Virus record (IMG/VR): IMGVR_UViG_3300037557_000625
Coordinates: 1-24,167 of that record
From: a virus
DNA length: 24,167 nucleotides
Direction: 5' to 3' (one strand)
The notes below the pieces were generated by a model. That model saw only the letters and a list, made by a program, of their open reading frames with translations, searched no databases and was not told the DNA's origin. Both the position numbers and the translations under genes were made by a program. How positions within the stretch are numbered: position 1 is the first letter of the stretch; the number at the start of each line of letters is the position of its first letter. Below, piece after piece: positions 9,445 through 18,954 of this stretch.

Positions 9445-10804
9445 TGAAAATTTTTCACGAAAAGTTGTTCCTTACGTAAAATCTGAATATTTTGATGATT
9501 CATCTGAAAAGATAGTTTTTAAATTAATTCAAGAATATATTTTAAAGCATAATGACCTACCAACCAAACAAAGTTTATCAATAGATTTAGACCAACTAGA
9601 TGGCATACACGAAGCGGATTTTAATAAATCTATTGAAATAATTAATACTTTAGATAAGCCCAGTGAATTAAAAGATATCTCACCTTGGCTTGTAGAACAA
9701 TCAGAAACATTTTGTCAAGATAAAGCGATATATAATGCTGTAGTAAATGCAATTGCGATTCTTGAGGGTAATGAAAAGACTCATTTATCTAAAGGAGCAA
9801 TCCCCTCAGTTTTATCAGAAGCTTTAGCTGTTTCTTTTGATCCTCACGTAGGACACGATTTTATTGAAGATGCGGAAGATAGATTTGAATTTTATCATAG
9901 AGTAGAAGAAAAACTTGAATTCGATCTCGAGATGTTTAATAAAATCACAAAAGGAGGTTTACCTAGGAAGACTTTAAATATTTGTTTAGCAGGAACTGGG
10001 GTTGGTAAATCTTTATTCATGTGTCATCAAGCCGCTAGTTGTCTTTCTATTAATAAAAATGTTCTTTACATCACCATGGAGATGGCGGAAGAAAGGATCG
10101 CTGAAAGAATTGATGCGAATCTTTTAGATATTCCAATGAGTCAATTAGAAGAAATTCCTAGAGATATGTATAAAAAGAAAATAGATAAACTCAAAGGAAA
10201 AACCAATGGTAAAATAATTATTAAAGAATATCCTACTGCATCAGCCGGGGCAATGCACTTTAAAAATTTATTAGGCGAATTAAACTTGAAACGTAATTTT
10301 GTTCCCGATATAATATTCATAGATTATTTAAACATTTGTACATCTTCTAGAATAAAGGCGGGCGCCAATGTTAATTCATACACATATATTAAATCTATTG
10401 CTGAAGAATTAAGGGGCTTAGCCGTAGAATATAATGTTCCGATTATGTCTGCAACACAAACAACTAGATCAGGGTTTACAAGTACGGATATTGGTTTAGA
10501 AGATACCTCTGAGAGTTTTGGTTTACCGGCAACTGCGGATTTTATGTTCGCACTTATATCTTCTGAAGAAATGGAAGAATTAAATCAAATGCTTGTAAAA
10601 CAATTGAAAAACAGATATAATGATCCTACATCTTATAGAAAGTTTATTATTGGAGTAGATAGAAGTAAAATGAGACTTTATGATGTAGAACAGAAAGCCC
10701 AAGAAGACATATCGGATAGCGGACAAGATGATACACCGTTGTTTGATGTTTCTACCGATAATAGACACAGAAATAAGGCTGATTTTGGAAACTTTCAATA
10801 TTAA
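9398..10804 (+). CDS. 41: Replicative DNA helicase gp41 (DnaB-like)
   Basis: Hexameric 5'-3' helicase that unwinds the fork and recruits primase gp61. The 468-residue length is close to T4 gp41 (475). The N-terminal about 150 residues form the helical primase-interacting domain; the RecA-like motor follows with Walker A GTGVGKS at 199-205, a conserved YITMEM strand at 224-229, Walker B IIFIDYLN at 305-312 with Asp309, and a MSATQTTRSG motif resembling the DnaB sensor/H3 region. The C-terminal tail is polar and low-complexity. The AAGGAAGGAG ribosome site lies inside the preceding gene. The gp61 partner starts 13 kb downstream instead of adjacent. Confidence 0.96.
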   Translation: MTERIERLILSHLIHNENFSRKVVPYVKSEYFDDSSEKIVFKLIQEYILKHNDLPTKQSLSIDLDQLDGIHEADFNKSIEIINTLDKPSELKDISPWLVEQSETFCQDKAIYNAVVNAIAILEGNEKTHLSKGAIPSVLSEALAVSFDPHVGHDFIEDAEDRFEFYHRVEEKLEFDLEMFNKITKGGLPRKTLNICLAGTGVGKSLFMCHQAASCLSINKNVLYITMEMAEERIAERIDANLLDIPMSQLEEIPRDMYKKKIDKLKGKTNGKIIIKEYPTASAGAMHFKNLLGELNLKRNFVPDIIFIDYLNICTSSRIKAGANVNSYTYIKSIAEELRGLAVEYNVPIMSATQTTRSGFTSTDIGLEDTSESFGLPATADFMFALISSEEMEELNQMLVKQLKNRYNDPTSYRKFIIGVDRSKMRLYDVEQKAQEDISDSGQDDTPLFDVSTDNRHRNKADFGNFQY

Positions 10805-11426
10805 TGATTCTGCTACCCCAAATGGGTTAGATTTTATTAAAGATTCATTAGGATGTACAGATCTAGCATTTAATGAATTTGAAAATTCTTATAATACAAA
10901 AACAAATCGTTATATTAAGCTTTGGCATGAATGTGCTAATAGAACAGAAGAAATATTAGAAGATGAACTAGGATTTTCTTGTTATGTTAATATACGAAAA
11001 GATTTGGATCATGCCCTATATGAAATGACTTTCGATGGGGCCGCCAATGTTCCTGAAGAACATTTTTCAGAATCAGAATTAGAAATAACAATTAATTTAT
11101 CACCAGAACTATATACTCAACAATTATTTATTCCTGAATCCACTTGGGAAAAATATAGACAACAATTTACACTCACCTACATTCACGAATTAACTCATTC
11201 TTTGCAATTTGATGATCAACAAAACAAATATGATGATTATTTTTCAAACCCATTTGAAATAGATGCGTATAGTTCTGAACTCGCCTTTGATATGTATCTC
11301 CACGATAAGCCAAAAACAAGTTGTGAAGCTTTTATGAGATATTCTAAAATAAATAAACAAAAAGTTTTTAAAAAATTTATACATCTTACCGAAAAGAAAT
11401 TCGGGTATCTTAAAAACAATAAATAA
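10728..11426 (+). CDS. HExxH putative zinc metallopeptidase
   Basis: A 232-residue protein of unknown family with a textbook zinc-peptidase motif, YIHELTHSLQ, at about 151-160 (His153, Glu154, His157). A possible third ligand, Glu177, lies in FEIDAYSSELAF 20 residues later, the gluzincin-like spacing. The N-terminal part is helical and acidic. The ATG at 10728 would overlap gp41 by 77 bases; a TTG at 10785, preceded by TAAGG at good distance, would shorten the overlap and may be the true start. No signal peptide is visible, so it should act in the cytoplasm or virion. Its substrate is unknown. Confidence 0.72.
   Translation: MIHRCLMFLPIIDTEIRLILETFNINDSATPNGLDFIKDSLGCTDLAFNEFENSYNTKTNRYIKLWHECANRTEEILEDELGFSCYVNIRKDLDHALYEMTFDGAANVPEEHFSESELEITINLSPELYTQQLFIPESTWEKYRQQFTLTYIHELTHSLQFDDQQNKYDDYFSNPFEIDAYSSELAFDMYLHDKPKTSCEAFMRYSKINKQKVFKKFIHLTEKKFGYLKNNK
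11418..11425 (+). promoter_or_regulatory. Late-promoter-like octamer before the head-protein block
   Basis: AATAAATA, one mismatch from TATAAATA, overlaps the stop codon of the HExxH gene and lies 30 bases before the first gene of the 11455-18954 block. It could be a weak late promoter; chance is not excluded. Confidence 0.25.
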
Positions 11427-11454: not shown

Positions 11455-11697
11455 ATGAAAAAAATACAAGATCTACACAGCTCAGCTACGGACGTCTTAG
11501 TGGAAGCAGCTATAAGTAAATTAGCAGTGAAAAGCATGGAAGACGTTGCTTCGCGTGCAAATAGAATAGCGAGATGGGCTCGCAGTGCCGCTGAAATGGA
11601 ATCATCTGACGCCAAGTCAGTTAAAGCCTTAGCCAAAGATATTCAGAAGATTATGGATAAGTGGGCTAAAGGTTCCTGGGAGGGGAAATCACTTTGA
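11455..11697 (+). CDS. Small helical hypothetical protein
   Basis: An 80-residue, almost entirely alpha-helical protein rich in Ala, Lys and Ser (AAISKLAVKSMEDVASRANRI and similar). No motif is recognised. AGGGG precedes the ATG by about seven bases. Its stop overlaps the TTG start of the next gene by four bases, so it opens the block of genes with capsid-targeting-like N-termini. Such small helical proteins could be scaffold or internal head components, but this is a positional inference only. Confidence 0.7.
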   Translation: MKKIQDLHSSATDVLVEAAISKLAVKSMEDVASRANRIARWARSAAEMESSDAKSVKALAKDIQKIMDKWAKGSWEGKSL

Positions 11698-13205
11698 ATT
11701 TTAAAACATATAAATCTTTTATGGCACCAGGTTATACTAGGAATGAGATTCGGACTCTCCTAGAACGAGTAACACCTGAACTCAAAAAACAAGTTCTAGA
11801 TCAAATAGAGCTCGTTGATAAAGATGAAGTGTTAAAAAATGTATTGGAGGCCATTCAAAAAGATGTGATGGCTAACATGATAAGAGAGAAAGCTGTTGAC
11901 GCCAAAATTACTATGAATCAAGATTTATTCATAGATGCTATGATATCTTTGATTAATAAGTCTGGCACTAGTGCCGAAGACCAAGTCAGTTTTTGTCAAG
12001 AATTAATTAATGGTGATGTAATTGACTGTATTAAAATGGTTAAAGATAGTTTAAATAAAGTGGTCAAGTTAGATTCGTATGTTACTACGAGAAATCCAGT
12101 ATGGTCCAAGGTTAGAGATAAACTAATTGCGTTAGATGTAAAGATAGATAATCAAAATATAGGTCCTGGAGAAATTCTTTATATTATGTCAACTCCAGGT
12201 GGTAAAAAGGGGGACGAAGATAATAAAGGTGATTGTTGGTTAGCACCAGGTGTTAATGTTGAATTAAAAAAAGATGGTGGGACCCTTTCAAAACCAACCA
12301 AATTTGCAGATGCTAAGTTAGAATGGATTAATGCTTTTAAAGACATAGGAAGAGACATTTCTGCTGATGATGCAGATAAAATGATGTTGGGCGGTACAAA
12401 ATATTATGGTGAATCAAATAAGCGCGGTGGTATAGCAAAATCTTTATCAATAGGAAGTAGAGAATATACAGCAACGTATATGGATAAAAAAGGTGTTACT
12501 CAAAGAGTTGCAGATAAGGCCTGTGAAACATTATATAATAAAATTTGCCAGGCGGCTATGCCTAATAACGGCATGGTTCCATATACATTTAACAAAACAG
12601 TAAAAAATGGTTTAACAGATCCTAATGAATTTATAAGACAATGGAATGCTAATGCTCTACACGATTATAAGGCTCATGGTTGGGATTATTTAACTCTATT
12701 TAATTCTGATTCCGGAGATACAATTTCATTTATGACACCACAAGATTTATATAAGTCAAAACAATGGAATGTGGGTTCTGAATGGATGTTGAGATGGGGC
12801 GGTGGCGGAGGTTTTGGAGGTACTGGTTCTTCCACTCGAGTTTATGCCGGTGCTTTTAAAAATGTTGGAACTTTTGATCCGGGACAAACAGATTTTGAAG
12901 AAAAATTAAAATCTAAAGATGATATAAAATCAGTATTGATGCACACCTTTGGCCAATTAAAAAATGGTAAATTAACTAAGAAAATTAAGGATAACTTTTC
13001 TTCGGCTAGTTCATTAAAGGGTCCACAATCTAATATAACACAAAATAATGATCCAAAAGATTTTAAAACATTATCTAAAGATATTGGTGCTAAGATAGGT
13101 GAATATTTTAAAGCAAAAGCAGCACTTGGATTTGGTAAAGATCGCGCAGATAGAGAAATTGGTATAAGTTATTCTGCTATGAAACAAAAATTAGGAATTA
13201 GATGA
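11694..13205 (+). CDS. PD-(D/E)XK nuclease-like protein, possible internal head protein
   Basis: A 503-residue protein I cannot name. Residues 1-140 are helical. At 157-192 there is GPGE, then GD (179-180), then VELK (189-192) followed by a GG turn. The series Glu160, Asp180, Glu190-x-Lys192 fits a PD-(D/E)XK nuclease core as found in other phage proteins of this layout (from memory). A glycine-rich loop (RWGGGGGFGGTG) occurs near 368-379. The N-terminus, MNFKTYKSFM, resembles the T4 capsid-targeting peptide but lacks the cleavage Glu. The TTG start is chosen because it overlaps the upstream stop (TTGA) and has AGGGG eight bases upstream. Confidence 0.72.
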   Translation: MNFKTYKSFMAPGYTRNEIRTLLERVTPELKKQVLDQIELVDKDEVLKNVLEAIQKDVMANMIREKAVDAKITMNQDLFIDAMISLINKSGTSAEDQVSFCQELINGDVIDCIKMVKDSLNKVVKLDSYVTTRNPVWSKVRDKLIALDVKIDNQNIGPGEILYIMSTPGGKKGDEDNKGDCWLAPGVNVELKKDGGTLSKPTKFADAKLEWINAFKDIGRDISADDADKMMLGGTKYYGESNKRGGIAKSLSIGSREYTATYMDKKGVTQRVADKACETLYNKICQAAMPNNGMVPYTFNKTVKNGLTDPNEFIRQWNANALHDYKAHGWDYLTLFNSDSGDTISFMTPQDLYKSKQWNVGSEWMLRWGGGGGFGGTGSSTRVYAGAFKNVGTFDPGQTDFEEKLKSKDDIKSVLMHTFGQLKNGKLTKKIKDNFSSASSLKGPQSNITQNNDPKDFKTLSKDIGAKIGEYFKAKAALGFGKDRADREIGISYSAMKQKLGIR

Positions 13206-14434
13206 AATCATATCGCCAGTTTCTCATAGAAGCCTCGGGTAAGAATCTTCATATGGAACATCTCGAAGATGAGGTGTTGAATGGAGGAGTTAATGGTACT
13301 AGAGGTGCTATTAATTTTCTGAGATCGCTAAGAGATATGTTAGCAGGTAATAATAAAGAAGCTGTTAATGTTACAGTTAAATGGGATGGTGCACCGGCGG
13401 CGGTAGCAGGAATTCATCCTAATGGAAAATTTTTCGTTGATTATAAATCAATGAGGAAACCTTGCTTTACACAATCAGATGTAGATGAACATTTTGGTGG
13501 CGGACCTTTACACCCAAAAATGTCTGCTCTTTTAGAACATTTGCCCAAATTAAATATACCAGGAAATATATTCCACGGAGATGTTCTTTGGACAGATAAT
13601 AAAGATAAAAAAATTAAAACAATTGATAAAGAAAAGTATGTTACTTTTACTCCTAACACTATAACATATGCCGTACCATTAAATACTGAATTAGCTAAAA
13701 AAATTATTGCTGCTAAAGTAGGGATTGTTTTTCATACAACATATAAAACATCCGGCGAAGAGGATTTAACTAATCTTAAAGCAGAATTTGGAGCCGATAT
13801 AAATTTATGGTCTTCTCATAGAGATGTTTGGGCCGTAAATGCAGATTTTACCGATTTAAGTGGATCAGCGACATTTACTCAATCAGATACCACTAAAGTA
13901 ACTGGAATGCTTTCTGAATTAGGAAAAGATTTTAATAAAGTTAATGGAAGATTTTTAGATAATATATCAAAAGATAATATTATCAGAACGCACATTAAAA
14001 CATTCATGAACACAAAAGTTAGAGAAGGTGAATTTGTTGATAATTATAAAAAATCAGCAAAAGATTGTGTTAAGTGGATTGAGAATAAAATGCAGAAAGA
14101 AGTAGGGAAGTTAAAGTCCGAAAGAGGTAGGCAAAGAAAACAAATGACTGTTGATGGATATATGAAAACTTTAAACGGTTCTATGGATCAAATAGAGATC
14201 ATATTTCGATTAATGTCATTAATAAATAATATCAAACTTTTTATAGTTAAAAAATTAGAAGAAGTAAAAGGAATAACAAATACCTTTATAAAAACTCCTT
14301 CAGGGTATAGAGTGACTAAGCCAGAAGGTTTTGTTGCTATTGATACCTTTGATAATCAAAAAGGTTTAAAATTAGTTAACAGGATGGAATTTAGTAGAAT
14401 AAATTTCACCGCAGAAAAGGAGTGGGACCAATGA
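13202..14434 (+). CDS. KxDG nucleotidyltransferase-like protein with capsid-targeting-like N-terminus
   Basis: A 410-residue protein resembling a virus-wide family of unknown function (possibly DUF6267, from memory). I see features of covalent nucleotidyltransferases (RNA/DNA ligases): VTVKWDGAPA at 57-66 with the KxDG signature (Lys60), FHGDVLW at 124-130 as a motif III candidate, VGIVFHTTYK at 173-182, then, after a helical insert at about 230-360, EGFVAID at 375-381 and LKLVNR at 389-394 as motif IV and V candidates. The N-terminus MKSYRQFLIEA closely matches the capsid-targeting peptide of T4 internal proteins, with LIE as the candidate gp21 cleavage site. It overlaps both neighbours by four bases. 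Confidence 0.75.
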   Translation: MKSYRQFLIEASGKNLHMEHLEDEVLNGGVNGTRGAINFLRSLRDMLAGNNKEAVNVTVKWDGAPAAVAGIHPNGKFFVDYKSMRKPCFTQSDVDEHFGGGPLHPKMSALLEHLPKLNIPGNIFHGDVLWTDNKDKKIKTIDKEKYVTFTPNTITYAVPLNTELAKKIIAAKVGIVFHTTYKTSGEEDLTNLKAEFGADINLWSSHRDVWAVNADFTDLSGSATFTQSDTTKVTGMLSELGKDFNKVNGRFLDNISKDNIIRTHIKTFMNTKVREGEFVDNYKKSAKDCVKWIENKMQKEVGKLKSERGRQRKQMTVDGYMKTLNGSMDQIEIIFRLMSLINNIKLFIVKKLEEVKGITNTFIKTPSGYRVTKPEGFVAIDTFDNQKGLKLVNRMEFSRINFTAEKEWDQ

Positions 14435-14694
14435 GACCTATTTTTACAGAAGAAGCCACGTTATTTGAATCTAAGGCTTCTGATAAACTGATTGATGCGC
14501 TACGGGAATGTATTGAGGATGCTCCTGAAAGAAGTAAGAATAAACTTGCGCAAATATATGAAGACTATGCTCATAAGTTTATGAGGCGACCACAAAAGTT
14601 ACCATATATGTTACAAGGATTCTTAGACGCCATTGAAGAAGCCTCCGATGCAAGAATAGAATGGAAGGGTGGCGGAGACAGAGCAGATTGGTAA
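14431..14694 (+). CDS. Small hypothetical protein in the head-protein block
   Basis: 87 residues, mainly helical and charged (DKLIDALRECIEDAPERSKNK; LQGFLDAIEEASDARIEW). No motif is recognised. The frame is open upstream to a GTG at 14422, but the ATG at 14431 forms an ATGA overlap with the preceding stop and has AAGGAG at a good distance, so it is the better start. The N-terminus (MRPIFTEEATLFES) has no clear capsid-targeting match. Confidence 0.72.
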   Translation: MRPIFTEEATLFESKASDKLIDALRECIEDAPERSKNKLAQIYEDYAHKFMRRPQKLPYMLQGFLDAIEEASDARIEWKGGGDRADW

Positions 14695-14707
14695 TAGAAA
14701 GACATCT

Positions 14708-15022
14708 ATGAAAGACTTATGGAAAAGATTTACTGCTTGGCTTAGCGGTTGGCCGAAGAGCAGCAAGTATGGAAGAGATGACCACGAGCAAGATTTTCTG
14801 TTTGCAGAGGAAGAAAATAAGATCATTGAACGGCACCTTTTAGACAGCCTAAAGAGAGAAAAAGAATACGAAAAAAAAGAGAAGAAAAATCAAAAGACAA
14901 AACCATTAAAATTAATGAACAAACGTGAATTGGAAGAATACGGAAGAACAATCGGCATCGAATTAGATAGACGACATACCAAGGAACGGCTAATTACAAT
15001 AATAGGAGAACATAGTGGCTAA
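14708..15022 (+). CDS. Hypothetical protein with C-terminal SAP/HeH-like segment
   Basis: 104 residues. The N-terminal part has a tryptophan-rich amphipathic segment (LWKRFTAWLSGW), followed by KYGRDDHEQDFLFAEEENK, a highly charged lysine/glutamate helix near 58-73, and a C-terminal block MNKRELEEYGRTIGIELD then TKERLI, which looks like a small helix-extension-helix (SAP/Rho-N-like) nucleic-acid-binding unit. An upstream GTG at 14669 has no properly spaced ribosome site, so the ATG at 14708 is preferred. It overlaps the next GTG start by eight bases. Confidence 0.68.
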   Translation: MKDLWKRFTAWLSGWPKSSKYGRDDHEQDFLFAEEENKIIERHLLDSLKREKEYEKKEKKNQKTKPLKLMNKRELEEYGRTIGIELDRRHTKERLITIIGEHSG

Positions 15023-15218
15023 AAAACAAAATTATTTCGGAGACGGGCCTTTTGGAAATAATGAATTTGATGATCTAGCAAATTCTGTAAAAAGAATTGT
15101 AGATAAAAAAGAAAAAGGCTTTAAATGGAGTAAGGAACAAATTCGGGATATGTCGGAACAAACCGCAAACAAATCTGTTCAAGATGCCTATGTGTCAATG
15201 GTTAAAGAGGATAAATGA
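15015..15218 (+). CDS. Small hypothetical protein, GTG start
   Basis: 67 residues, basic and polar. The N-terminus is glycine/asparagine-rich (NYFGDGPFGNNEFDDL), followed by two helices (ANSVKRIVDKKEKG and KEQIRDMSEQTANKSV). The GTG start is supported by AGGAG six bases upstream and the overlap with the preceding gene. The stop overlaps the next ATG. No family is recognised. Confidence 0.7.
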   Translation: MAKKQNYFGDGPFGNNEFDDLANSVKRIVDKKEKGFKWSKEQIRDMSEQTANKSVQDAYVSMVKEDK

Positions 15219-16612
15219 CATCATTTATCGAATTACGTGAAGGAACACTAAAAACTGCTGTATTTACATTCGGCCGGTTTAATCCACCCACAACCGGGCA
15301 TGAGATTTTAGTTAATAAAATTATAACAGTGGCTTCTAGAAGTCGGGCAGATGCATTTGTTTTTTTAAGTTCCTCACAAGATTCGAAAAAAAATCCATTA
15401 GATTATAAAGATAAAGTCAAATGGATGAAGAAAATGTTTAAGCCAAGAGGCCAAAAACTTTTTAAATATTCCAGGGAGCAACCCGAAGATGTTATGAAAG
15501 TTGCTTCTTTATTGCACGATAAAGGATATGAACAAATCATTATGGTTGTTGGTAGCGACAGAATAAATGATTTTAAAAAACTCTTATCTCAATATAATGG
15601 CGTTAAAGATAAGCCGCATGGATTTTATGATTTTAAAAAAATAGAAATAGAAAGCGCAGGAGAAAGAGATCCTGACGCAGATGATGCGACAGGTATGTCT
15701 GCATCTAAGTTAAGGTCCCTCGCCATAGACAGCGATTTCGAGACGTTTAAAACCGGTTTACCGGATACTTTAAGTGAAAAAGACAAAAGAATTCTATATC
15801 AATTATTAAGAAAACAAATGAAGCTAAGTGTAATGGAAAAACAAATAAAAGAAAAATTCAATACTTCGGAAGTGCTTAACACGAGCATAAAGCGCCCGCA
15901 GCCGGTTGCCCCGATGCCCAAAGGAAATACCCCGAAACAACAAAAAAAGAGTGCTGCTTCTTTTATTGCCAAAACCTTACCAAAAGAAAAGAAAGTCCCA
16001 GCAATACCTGGAGTAGATGATGTAGATGAAGTAAAAGAAGGTTTATGGATAGAAAAAGTTGAATTTGAAGGCGAAACATATCATGTAGATAAGAAAGCCG
16101 CTGTAATATTTAATTACATAAAATCCTTACCATATAATACTCAAGAAATATCTTATATTAGAGGATGTTTAAAAGAATGCCAAGGTTTTTTTGATAATTT
16201 TACATTAATAACGGAAAAAATAAAACTTTGGGAACTTTCAAAATTAAGAGGACTTATTAAAAAGACATCTGATTATATAACTGTATTAGATGAAGGATCC
16301 GGAATGATTGATTTTAATAAGGCAGATTTTTCATATTTACATGAAATGGTAGATACTCTTCCCGTAGATGAAGTTAACTTGCAAGATCCAATTAGTAATA
16401 AATTACAAAAAATTCTTGGCTTAAGAGAATGGAATAAGAATCGGGCAGGAGAAGGCCAACAGTTAGAATTAGGAACAGATAAATATAGACAATATGTTGT
16501 GGCTTTGACTCCCGAAGAGGAGTTTAAAACCGAACAAGATAAAAAAAGATTAATGCAAACCGAAAGATATAATAAAATTCTTTCCAAAATAATTGCTAGT
16601 AGGAGCAAATGA
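15215..16612 (+). CDS. NMN-adenylyltransferase-like nucleotidyltransferase with large C-terminal extension
   Basis: The first about 190 residues are an HxGH-type nucleotidyltransferase: FTFGRFNPPTTGH at 17-29 (TxGH variant of the nucleotide-binding motif), VVGSDR at 111-116, and MSASKLRSLA at 161-170, matching the ISxTxxR motif. This fits NadM/cytidylyltransferase enzymes, which join a nucleotide to a phosphate-bearing partner; NMN plus ATP to NAD is the best guess. The remaining about 270 residues are a Pro/Lys-rich linker and a helical domain I do not recognise. The N-terminus MTSFIELREG resembles a capsid-targeting peptide with LRE as a gp21-type cleavage site. It starts by ATGA overlap. 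Confidence 0.82.
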   Translation: MTSFIELREGTLKTAVFTFGRFNPPTTGHEILVNKIITVASRSRADAFVFLSSSQDSKKNPLDYKDKVKWMKKMFKPRGQKLFKYSREQPEDVMKVASLLHDKGYEQIIMVVGSDRINDFKKLLSQYNGVKDKPHGFYDFKKIEIESAGERDPDADDATGMSASKLRSLAIDSDFETFKTGLPDTLSEKDKRILYQLLRKQMKLSVMEKQIKEKFNTSEVLNTSIKRPQPVAPMPKGNTPKQQKKSAASFIAKTLPKEKKVPAIPGVDDVDEVKEGLWIEKVEFEGETYHVDKKAAVIFNYIKSLPYNTQEISYIRGCLKECQGFFDNFTLITEKIKLWELSKLRGLIKKTSDYITVLDEGSGMIDFNKADFSYLHEMVDTLPVDEVNLQDPISNKLQKILGLREWNKNRAGEGQQLELGTDKYRQYVVALTPEEEFKTEQDKKRLMQTERYNKILSKIIASRSK

Positions 16613-18954
16613 TGGACTGGTCAAAATATTATCCCGCGAATTACAGCGCGATAACCGCAGCAGATGTTAAAATGATTAGGGAATTGAAGGACGCTCCTGT
16701 TGAAGAAGATAACACTAATGATGTATCTGATGACGGCAAGGAAATGGATAAAGTCCAACCTAAGGCGCTAAAGAAAAAATTTGGTAATCGCAAGGATAAA
16801 GATATCGACAACGATGGGGACACAGACGATTCTGATGAAGTTATTCATGCTAAAAGAAAAGCTATTGGTAAAGCCATTGATAAACAAGATGAAGCAATAG
16901 ATCCAGCTATCGCCCAAGCAAAAGCAAGGGAAGCCGCATACAAAAAAAATCTTCAACATCAGCAAGGTGGAATAAGGAAAGTCAACGTCACTACTAACAT
17001 CCCTGCACACGATGCAGCTCAAGCCCGAAAGGAAAGAGATGAAGGTGTTGAGATTGATGAAGTTGATTCATCCGGCATAGATATGTATGATAATAAAAGA
17101 AAAGAAGCAGAAAGAGCTAAGAAGGCTAGAGAAACTCCTTCTTCTCCGGAAACTAAAAGAAAGCTTAAAATTGTAAGAGCTGGAGGAACTGTTGATGAAA
17201 AGCAATTAGATCAGAAAAAAGGCAAGAATAAAAAAGATTACAGGGATGATAATTTAAAGAAGACGATAAAAGGAATAGATGAGCCTGATTTTTCTAAAAA
17301 CCAAGATACAGTAACAAATATGGAATGGGCTAAAAAGGTAATTAATGATTATCTTAATATCGAAGAACATTGCGGGTGGTGTGATCAAGGAGCACAAACC
17401 GAATCAAAAGAACTTCCCACATCAAAAGGAATAGCTCAACAAATTAAAGAATTAGCCAAAGCTGTTAGAGGAAAAGATAGACTTTCAATCGAAGGGGCCG
17501 CTTCGCTAGTATCTAAAAAAGATTATGCTAAATTAGCACCCTATCTAGATAAGATGTCAGAAGATGCTCGACAAAGTGTTTTGATGGTTCTAATGACCGA
17601 TCAAAAAGTAGCTAATTCAGTTATGAAAAAAATGAAAACAGAGCAATATGATGAATGTTTCATACCTTCTCATAAATTTATTCTTGAAGGAATGTATAAA
17701 AAATATCATGAATTAACATGGGGAGAAATTGGTGAGAGGTTAATTAAAAATACGGAACGCAGATTAGTTTCTCTTGCTTATGCTACTAAAATGGGAACAA
17801 TTGATGCTCCTTCACCCGAAGTTCAAAAATTAGCAGATGAATGTGAATTAGAAGATTTAGAAAAAGCTTGCGGTCAAATGATTACGGATGATTCAGATAT
17901 AACTGAAGTTACTCAGATGACTCAATCACAGAAGCAGTCGATGCAGCTAAAGAAAGATCTTAATAAGAAGAGACTAGCTCAAACTAATGCCGCTAGCGCA
18001 ACTCAAGCTAGTTCGGATCAAACCCGAACTAACACGGCAACTAATGCAGACAAAGATCAGCAAAAAAGAATGGACGCGGAAGCTAAAGCAAGAGCCCAAA
18101 AGAAAGCAGCTCAGGCAAGGTTATCAGATGATCCTACCATGAAAAAGGACGTCCAGACCAGTACTAAGGGGAAAGTATTAGGTGCAATTGGCACGGCATT
18201 AATTGGCAGCAACGAACCAGAAGGCCAACAAATCGAAGATCAAAAACTTGACGCCAGACGTAGAATTTTTAAAGAAAAAATTAAAAAATTGGCCTATGAA
18301 AAAGCTAAAGAAATTTTAGGTAAGAGACTATCTGTAGAACCGATAATAACTAGAGAAACTAATAAGAATGATAAGTCTGATGACGGTGAAGGGTTGGATG
18401 CGGTTCAACCAGATGCTGTAAAAAAGAAATTTAAGGATCGCAAAGACAAAGATATTGATAATGATGGTGATAAAGATGATTCTGATAAATTTATACACAA
18501 AAAAAGAAAAGCAATTTCCAAATCAGTGAAAGCTGAAGTAGAAGATTCTGCCAAAGTAAAAGAAGGTGGTAATATTGATAACAAAATAAAAATGGATCCA
18601 GAGGACAAGATGAAAGAAAGTACAGGAGTAGCCTTTGTTCGAAAATTTAAGAACAAAATGAACGAGGTAAATAAAGAAGAAGGTAATTCGTTACAAGATC
18701 AAATTTTAGAGTTGTTCCGAAGTTCTTTTGCCAGCACAGACGGCGAACCAGTTGGTGCCGAATTTGCTGTTTCAGATGAACCTGCTTCTGCCTCAACCAT
18801 TGCCAGAACATTAAGGTGCAGCCCAACAGAAGTACAAAAACTCTTAGATGATATGGTAGATGCCGGACAAATTTCTAGAGTAGGTGATGCTTATTCATAC
18901 GCTTCACCCAGACCAGCAGAGCCTAAGGGAACTAAGGATTATTCGGCCGCATAA
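16609..18954 (+). CDS. Large charged repeat protein with Asp-rich calcium-type motifs, probable virion protein
   Basis: A 781-residue, highly charged Lys/Glu/Asp/Ala-rich protein, largely helical or disordered. A 55-residue unit occurs twice (residues 39-93 and 589-643, about 65% identical), each centred on RKDKDIDNDGD then DDSD, the DxDxDGxxD pattern of EF-hand/dockerin-type calcium loops. A Gln/Ala/Thr-rich linker lies near 450-530. Residues about 696-766 look like a winged helix (ILELFRSSF, then SASTIARTLRCSPTEVQKLL, then DAGQISRVGDAYSY). A single CGWC pair occurs near 255. The ATG overlaps the previous stop; a second ATG follows immediately. A structural or internal head role is inferred from context. 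Confidence 0.75.
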   Translation: MMDWSKYYPANYSAITAADVKMIRELKDAPVEEDNTNDVSDDGKEMDKVQPKALKKKFGNRKDKDIDNDGDTDDSDEVIHAKRKAIGKAIDKQDEAIDPAIAQAKAREAAYKKNLQHQQGGIRKVNVTTNIPAHDAAQARKERDEGVEIDEVDSSGIDMYDNKRKEAERAKKARETPSSPETKRKLKIVRAGGTVDEKQLDQKKGKNKKDYRDDNLKKTIKGIDEPDFSKNQDTVTNMEWAKKVINDYLNIEEHCGWCDQGAQTESKELPTSKGIAQQIKELAKAVRGKDRLSIEGAASLVSKKDYAKLAPYLDKMSEDARQSVLMVLMTDQKVANSVMKKMKTEQYDECFIPSHKFILEGMYKKYHELTWGEIGERLIKNTERRLVSLAYATKMGTIDAPSPEVQKLADECELEDLEKACGQMITDDSDITEVTQMTQSQKQSMQLKKDLNKKRLAQTNAASATQASSDQTRTNTATNADKDQQKRMDAEAKARAQKKAAQARLSDDPTMKKDVQTSTKGKVLGAIGTALIGSNEPEGQQIEDQKLDARRRIFKEKIKKLAYEKAKEILGKRLSVEPIITRETNKNDKSDDGEGLDAVQPDAVKKKFKDRKDKDIDNDGDKDDSDKFIHKKRKAISKSVKAEVEDSAKVKEGGNIDNKIKMDPEDKMKESTGVAFVRKFKNKMNEVNKEEGNSLQDQILELFRSSFASTDGEPVGAEFAVSDEPASASTIARTLRCSPTEVQKLLDDMVDAGQISRVGDAYSYASPRPAEPKGTKDYSAA
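16723..16887 (+). repeat. Internal protein repeat, copy 1
   Basis: Codes for residues 39-93 of the 781-residue protein. It aligns without gaps to copy 2 at 18373-18537 with 36 of 55 identical residues by my count; the central 11 residues RKDKDIDNDGD are identical. Third-position changes show old divergence, not a recent duplication. Confidence 0.85.
18373..18537 (+). repeat. Internal protein repeat, copy 2
   Basis: Codes for residues 589-643 of the same protein and is the partner of the unit at 16723-16887. It shares SDDG, VQP, KKKF, the Asp-rich loop and KRKAI in the same register, so the whole 55-residue unit, not only the metal loop, was duplicated. Confidence 0.85.

What the first reader, a model, noticed from the sequence alone, without database searches (positions are those of the whole stretch)
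11455..18954. Candidate cassette of head-packaged, ejected enzymes
Seen: MKSYRQFLIEA (protein at 13202), MTSFIELREG (15215) and MNFKTYKSFM (11694) share a short N-terminal pattern: basic/polar, aromatic, then F-[LIM]-x-E or a close variant. Known: T4 internal proteins carry such a capsid-targeting peptide (MKTYQEFIAEA in IPIII, from memory), which the gp21 protease removes after (L/I)-x-E. LIE/A and LRE/G fit that site. Inference: the nuclease-like, KxDG and NMNAT-like proteins are packaged in the head and delivered with the DNA, acting before any phage transcription, possibly on host DNA, RNA or NAD-based defence. Eight genes overlap or nearly abut, suggesting one unit.
Basis: partly seen in the sequence, partly recalled or inferred. 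Interest (0 to 1): 0.75.

Follow-up and report, generated by a model that had tools for sequence, protein, structure and literature searches.

The report
Head-packaging tags on phage enzymes
A marine relative of phage T4 carries enzymes whose first ten amino acids match the T4 tag that loads proteins into the phage head, and related phages carry the same tag on enzymes already found in purified particles, so these phages probably deliver ready-made enzymes with their DNA.

Summary
The window is a T4-like marine phage fragment. Eight overlapping genes (11455-18954) follow the gp41 helicase.

The 13202 protein (Pfam DUF6267) begins MKSYRQFLIEA. It matches all four residues that mutagenesis shows matter in the T4 capsid-targeting sequence (CTS): 4 and 7 for targeting, 8 and 10 for gp21 cleavage. 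Homologues down to 32-50% identity keep F/Y-x-x-F-L-x-E and vary elsewhere.

The 15215 protein (NMNAT) has a one-residue-shorter form, F-x-x-L-R-E/G. Many cyanophage NMNATs carry the full tag (MKxFxxFLxEA); three of these (S-SM1, S-CREM2, S-SCSM1) are in published virion proteomes. The 11694 protein keeps the targeting half but has Pro for the cleavage Glu; a divergent homologue has MKTYKNFMTE/S.

In ten genomes the tag is enriched at gene starts over internal Met (P about 5e-7). With Glu at P1 there are 139 distinct N-termini in 36 families; no other residue exceeds 17. The same genomes' predicted gp23 sites read alike (FLSE/A, FMTE/A).

Packaging is well supported for 13202, likely for 15215, open for 11694. 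Ejection and NAD or anti-defence roles are untested. I found no earlier report of this tag in cyanophages or other marine T4-like phages in the papers held.

The parts
11418..11425 (+). AATAAATA, late-promoter-like sequence 30 nt before the block; suggestive only
   Evidence: Conserved in 7 distinct relatives but overlaps the stop codon of the gene before, and such sites are not enriched in the window
11455..11697 (+). 80-aa protein, first gene of the block; VLVE/A within residues 15-19 resembles a cleavage site but there is no aromatic targeting half
   Evidence: L-x-E/A kept in most close relatives, lost in L013/L014 and L022-L028
11694..13205 (+). 503-aa putative PD-(D/E)xK nuclease, TTG start; N-terminus MNFKTYKSFMAP keeps the targeting half, lacks the cleavage Glu
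   Evidence: Relatives MKTYxxFMAP, divergent clade MKTYKNFMTES; E160, D180, E190xK192 conserved
13202..14434 (+). 410-aa DUF6267 protein, ligase-like KxDG nucleotidyltransferase (predicted)
   Evidence: Pfam DUF6267 1.7e-87; invariant K60, D62, G63, E375, G376, K390
13202..13231 (+). Capsid-targeting peptide MKSYRQFLIE, predicted cut before Ala11
   Evidence: Matches T4 determinants 4, 7, 8, 10; conserved in homologues
14422..14694 (+). 90-aa small ORF of the block (GTG start)
   Evidence: no family match
14669..15022 (+). 117-aa small ORF (GTG start), weak match to phrog_3281 (endonuclease VII) in its C-terminal half
   Evidence: E=2.7e-5
15015..15218 (+). 67-aa small ORF (GTG start)
   Evidence: conserved in relatives
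15215..16612 (+). 465-aa NMNAT-like nucleotidyltransferase
   Evidence: CTP_transf_like 1.1e-5, phrog_3041 1.9e-62; GRFNPPTTGH and GMSASKLR motifs
15215..15241 (+). Short-form targeting peptide MTSFIELRE, predicted cut before Gly10
   Evidence: F4, L7, E9 kept in the clade; Melnitz has MKKFSEIIEA; short form enriched at starts
16609..18954 (+). 781-aa protein with two DKDIDNDGDxDDSD repeats, last gene of the block; no tag in the window
   Evidence: Repeats conserved beside NMNAT in Melnitz, HTVC008M, Syn9 and S-SM1

Best explanation
The block is a cargo island of a T4-like phage. Step 1: the DUF6267 protein (13202), and with a weaker tag the NMNAT (15215), are made with an N-terminal capsid-targeting peptide. 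Step 2: aromatic residues 4 and 7 dock the protein to the prohead core while the core assembles. Step 3: the S77 prohead protease (gp21 homologue) cuts after L-x-E, the same site type as in gp23, and frees the enzyme inside the maturing head. Step 4: the enzymes remain in the virion beside the DNA. Step 5 (inferred): they enter the host with the DNA, as T4 IPI, IPIII and Alt do, and act at once; an NMNAT plus a ligase-like nucleotidyltransferase would fit restoring NAD or mending nucleic acid damaged by host defence. Steps 1 and 3 rest on sequence evidence, step 4 on published proteomes of related phages, step 2 on analogy with mapped T4 residues, step 5 on analogy only.
For: 13202 fits all four mapped T4 determinants and homologues keep them while other positions drift. 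Tag enriched at starts over internal Met: 35/4617 vs 15/8593, P=4.5e-7; 12/1416 vs 3/8748, P=1.6e-8 with a ribosome-site filter. Given only the targeting half, P1 is Glu in 43/55 NMNAT and 32/40 DUF6267 peptides vs 7.4% background. Decoy scan: 139 distinct N-termini for Glu, at most 17 for any other residue. gp21-type protease in all eight genomes tested; predicted gp23 sites read alike. Tagged NMNATs in virions of S-SM1 (sequence), S-CREM2 and S-SCSM1. S-CREM2 SAM hydrolase, kinase and Cas9-annotated nuclease, all virion-detected, also carry the motif; a tagged S-CRM01 kinase is a relative of the kinase reported in its virions.
Against: No virion data for the window's own phage. The 15215 tag is a short form and is absent in a sister clade; 11694 lacks the cleavage Glu. 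Patterns were shaped on these data, loci were recruited by DUF6267, and sequences are related. Virion MS does not exclude carry-over (authors' caveat). S-CBWM1, classed outside Kyanoviridae, has a virion NMNAT without a tag. DUF6267 has no full tag in the cyanophage records examined and is not in the S-CREM2 virion list. Ejection is untested.
Confidence: 0.76

Rival explanations
1. DUF6267 and NMNAT form one complex and a single tag on either partner packages both, so the weak NMNAT peptide in the window is a relic.
For: The full tag never sits on both proteins in 239 loci (77 NMNAT only, 64 DUF6267 only, 98 neither). The two domains are fused in phrog_455 and in an S-PM2 protein.
Against: The tag's place follows clades: on the DUF6267 tree the DUF6267 tag needs only 2 changes, so exclusivity rests on few events. 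S-CREM2 has NMNAT but not DUF6267 in its virion list. The short NMNAT peptide is conserved in the window clade.
Confidence: 0.25
2. The tagged proteins are core or morphogenesis components that are packaged and cut but stay in the head or only help assembly, rather than being delivered to act in the host.
For: T4 internal proteins also affect head shape (IPIII); some block neighbours are structural-looking; ejection has not been shown for any of these families.
Against: Cargo families are mostly enzymes with host-side substrates (NMNAT, kinase, SAM hydrolase, RimK ATP-grasp, HAD phosphatase), they change from phage to phage, and the window's NMNAT keeps its catalytic motifs.
Confidence: 0.2
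3. The peptides are ordinary N-terminal amphipathic helices and the proteins are made and used only inside the infected cell; virion detection of relatives is carry-over of abundant proteins.
For: Low-confidence helix predicted at residues 4-12 of the DUF6267 model; short motifs arise by chance; proteome authors raise carry-over.
Against: Specificity for Glu at P1 and not Asp (139 vs 8 distinct N-termini); the same peptide on many unrelated families; match to gp23 processing sites; association with virion proteins in S-CREM2 (6/52 vs 2/165, P=0.0028, exploratory).
Confidence: 0.1

Closest known systems
T4 internal proteins IPII and IPIII with their capsid-targeting sequence (Mullaney and Black; reviewed in PMC9026906)
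   Same: Same positions 4, 7, 8 and 10, same length, same N-terminal place, same predicted protease site, protease of the same family (S77)
   Different: T4 cargo is small non-enzymatic proteins (Alt apart); here the tag sits on large enzymes encoded next to replication genes, in several unrelated families
Cyanophage virion NMNAT / cytidylyltransferase (S-SM1 T4-GC190, S-CREM2 ORF154, S-SCSM1 ORF91)
   Same: Homologous enzyme, comparable gene neighbourhood, N-terminal tag, found in virions
   Different: They carry the full tag and no full tag on their DUF6267; in the window the full tag is on DUF6267 and the NMNAT has the short form
T4 Alt and other head-packaged NAD-linked effectors (PMC9503650)
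   Same: Head-packaged enzymes of phages with contractile tails linked to NAD chemistry
   Different: Alt uses NAD to modify RNA polymerase; here the predicted enzyme makes NAD, and no ADP-ribosyltransferase was identified in the block
SPN3US / phiKZ ejection proteins with propeptides (PMC5694885)
   Same: Protease-cut N-terminal propeptides on head-packaged proteins
   Different: Propeptides there are mostly far longer and of different sequence

Membership tests
T4-type capsid-targeting sequence | Aromatic residues at positions 4 and 7 (targeting) | tested here: met
   13202: Y4, F7; 15215: F4 with L7; 11694: KTYxxF two residues further in
T4-type capsid-targeting sequence | L/I at P3 and Glu at P1 of the cut (processing) | tested here: met
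   13202: L8, E10. 15215: L7, E9 (shorter). Not met for 11694, which has Pro
T4-type capsid-targeting sequence | Conserved in homologues with variable residues in between | tested here: met
   lost in cyanophage DUF6267 and in one NMNAT clade
T4-type capsid-targeting sequence | S77 prohead protease in the same phage with a like site in gp23 | tested here: met
   Met in full-length relatives, not visible in the window fragment; sites outside T4 are predictions
T4-type capsid-targeting sequence | Protein present and processed in the virion | not testable with these tools
   Presence is published for tagged NMNATs and a kinase of relatives; processing not reported; no data for the window's phage
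T4-type capsid-targeting sequence | Peptide alone sends a foreign protein into the head | not testable with these tools
   Needs the GFP fusion assay
DUF6267 (Pfam PF19782) | Profile match over the cut-off | tested here: met
   294.7 bits, cut-off 27, full length
ATP-dependent ligase / nucleotidyltransferase | KxDG and further motifs on the ligase fold | tested here: inconclusive
   KxDG and EG motifs invariant; ligases among weak fold matches, E 0.01 to 0.5
NMNAT / cytidylyltransferase | GxFxPxTxGH and S-x-S/T-x-x-R motifs | tested here: met
   GRFNPPTTGH at 20, SASKLR at 162; far below NCBIfam cut-offs for cellular NMNATs, so substrate unproven
PD-(D/E)xK nuclease for the 11694 protein | E...D...ExK on an alpha-beta-beta-beta-alpha core | tested here: inconclusive
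   E160, D180, E190, K192 on the expected elements; no fold match in PDB, model pLDDT 71

The most novel reading that the evidence does not exclude
Marine and other T4-like phages use one portable 10-residue capsid tag to load changing sets of unrelated enzymes (NMNAT, ligase-like DUF6267, kinase, SAM hydrolase, nuclease, HAD phosphatase, ATP-grasp), many of them from an island behind gp41, delivering a pre-made anti-defence kit that keeps up NAD and repairs nucleic acid before phage genes are expressed.
Probability: 0.3. Interest if true: 0.82.

Novelty: new variant of a known kind. Interest (0 to 1): 0.64.

Why it matters
NMNAT and kinases keep turning up in cyanophage virion proteomes, and their authors could not tell cargo from carry-over. 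A conserved, protease-cut targeting peptide gives a direct test and a way to predict cargo from sequence in a very abundant group of ocean phages. It would also extend a system mapped in T4 to large enzymes of unrelated families, and supply natural tags for loading proteins into phage heads.

Tried and rejected
Late-promoter search: NATAAATA sites in the window are below the shuffle mean (13 vs 18.6); the one before the block is conserved but overlaps a stop codon, so it was not used as evidence. PDB sequence search with both alignments: nothing. PDB fold search for the 11694 model: nothing significant. The 11694 protein has no relative in the annotated phage collection at E 1e-5. NMNAT/DUF6267 tag exclusivity was looked at as evidence for a complex and held back, because the tree shows few events. 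A search for the gp21 family in the window alone found nothing, as expected for a fragment. The HTVC008M genome has no full-tag match, but its DUF6267 type keeps M..L-x-E-D before the domain with variable x.

Full report
What is there. The window is a 24-kb viral record from a T4-like marine phage. Clamp loader, RegA, dUTPase, DNA polymerase, UvsX and DnaB-type helicase genes (recognised from sequence) fill the first 10.8 kb. Eight genes from 11455 to 18954 follow, each overlapping the next by 4-26 nt. The order helicase - unknown - DUF6267 - small ORFs - NMNAT recurs in Methylophilales phage Melnitz and Pelagibacter phage HTVC008M. The 13202 protein is Pfam DUF6267 (1.7e-87). The 15215 protein is a cytidylyltransferase/NMNAT-like enzyme with both catalytic motifs. 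The 11694 protein has no database family; ten aligned relatives share G157-x-G-E160, D180 and E190-x-K192, placed as in PD-(D/E)xK nucleases on a moderate model, without a fold match.

The observation. The T4 control is correct: a genome scan returns ipII and ipIII, both MKTYQEFIAEA. In T4, mutational tests put targeting at residues 4 and 7 and processing at residues 8 and 10 (PMC9026906). MKSYRQFLIEA (13202) fits all four. MTSFIELREG (15215) fits with one residue fewer before the site. MNFKTYKSFMAP (11694, TTG start) keeps Y and F but has Pro where Glu is needed; in T4, Asp at position 10 blocks processing yet allows targeting, so targeting without cutting at this site is possible.

Conservation. 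In 80 IMG/VR loci the 13202 N-terminus reads MKSYKQFL[IVTA]EASGKN in close relatives and MFAFxxFLTE[QA]KN at about 46% identity. Stenotrophomonas phage DLP_6 (36% identity) has MMKFTQFLAES, and phage C48C1 has three tagged genes in the same block. The Pelagibacter type keeps L-x-E-D before the domain with x mostly V or N, also K, L, H, I, F or Y. Many cyanophage NMNATs read MKxFxxFLxEA. In the window clade the 15215 peptide is M[TI][ST]FxxLREG; Melnitz has MKKFSEIIEA; the sister clade among L036-L080 starts directly at the catalytic domain.

More than chance. In ten phage genomes the full tag occurs at 35 of 4,617 candidate starts and 15 of 8,593 internal ATGs (P=4.5e-7); with a ribosome-site filter 12 of 1,416 against 3 of 8,748 (P=1.6e-8). 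Starting only from the targeting half, Glu follows at P1 in 43/55 NMNAT and 32/40 DUF6267 distinct peptides against 7.4% background. Most exceptions are not real starts or have the site shifted. A decoy scan with P1 set to each amino acid gives 139 distinct N-termini in 36 families for Glu, at most 17 distinct N-termini for any other residue, and 8 for Asp; eleven Glu families show at least two distinct N-termini, against at most three for other residues. Caveats: the patterns were shaped on these data, loci were recruited by DUF6267, and sequences are related.

Protease and its other substrate. All eight genomes tested carry a gp21-type protease. The gp23 segment before the mature protein ends FLTE/A in T4, FLSE/A in Melnitz, FLAE/A in S-CRM01, FMTE/A in G004, LLTE/A in S-CREM2, ILFE/D in G001 and LLFE/S in G002. 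The T4 site is from general knowledge; the others are predictions by alignment. Melnitz gp23 and its first block gene share FLSE/A exactly.

Virion evidence. In the S-CREM2 proteome (52 proteins, PMC10665884) the detected non-structural enzymes other than endolysins are a SAM hydrolase (MKDFDSFLEE), an APH/ChoK kinase (MKRFDAFLTEE), an NMNAT (MKNFSSFLTEA) and a Cas9-annotated nuclease (RFASFMAEA from residue 18). All four carry the motif, as do the detected ORF13 (first aromatic replaced by Leu) and ORF136. Over the genome the motif lies within the first 30 residues of 6/52 virion and 2/165 other ORFs (P=0.0028, exploratory pattern; the stricter pattern gives 3/52 vs 1/165, P=0.04). S-SM1 NMNAT (MKKFSAFLNEA) and S-SCSM1 NMNAT (MKSFLQFLKEA) are reported in virions (PMC3037559; PMC9602691; sequences). 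In S-SCSM1 the region behind gp41/mazG holds virion ORFs 89-93, 95 and 97, whereas none of the roughly 80 genes after it is labelled so. S-CREM2 DUF6267, which has no tag, is not in the virion list. The authors could not exclude carry-over; the tag argues against that. Counter-example: S-CBWM1, classed outside Kyanoviridae, has a virion NMNAT without a tag.

Where the tag sits. In 239 loci with both genes the full tag is never on both: NMNAT only 77, DUF6267 only 64, neither 98. Fused forms exist (phrog_455; S-PM2). This would fit a complex needing one tag, but the tree shows the DUF6267 tag changing only twice, so it is a hint, not a test.

What the cargo may do. DUF6267 has invariant KxDG, EG and K residues resembling ligase motifs I, IV and V; outside its own family, RNA ligases are the most frequent named viral fold matches (E from 0.01) and ligases recur in the PDB search. 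With an NMNAT beside it, NAD upkeep and nucleic-acid repair against host defence is a reasonable guess. T4 IPI and IPIII do counter host defences. No assay here bears on function.

Verdict. The packaging idea is well supported for 13202, likely for 15215, and open for 11694 and the other block genes. Ejection and function are unproven. A search of the held papers for cyanophage together with capsid targeting returned only one T4 review, which is not proof that no such report exists. The kind of system is known from T4; its spread over enzyme families in marine T4-like phages appears new.

Noticed in passing
window 10728-11426 +: 232-aa protein between helicase and block with an HELTH (HExxH) zinc-protease-like motif at residue 153; no family match.
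   Followed up: no
window 16801-16836 and 18451-18486 +: Two DKDIDNDGDxDDSD EF-hand- or dockerin-like repeats in the 781-aa protein; the same repeat sits next to NMNAT in Melnitz, HTVC008M, Syn9 and S-SM1.
   Followed up: partly
T4 NC_000866 18966-19130 -: T4 gp61.1, 54 aa, unknown function, begins MKTFKEFIKED and fits the capsid tag; it might be an overlooked T4 internal protein.
   Followed up: no
G004 (contig of L066) 81274-84318 +: Four further tagged genes lie together about 13 kb after the tagged DUF6267 gene, one of a 305-aa family with 18 distinct tagged N-termini and no Pfam match.
   Followed up: partly
S-CREM2 OR473000 3837-13331 -: A second cargo-like cluster: SAM hydrolase, Cas9-annotated nuclease, kinase and small ORFs, most with tag-like N-termini and found in virions.
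   Followed up: partly
S-PM2 NC_006820 103025-104804 (L130): DUF6267 is split over two ORFs in this record, while another S-PM2 entry has one 591-aa DUF6267-cytidylyltransferase protein; possible frameshift or sequencing difference.
   Followed up: no
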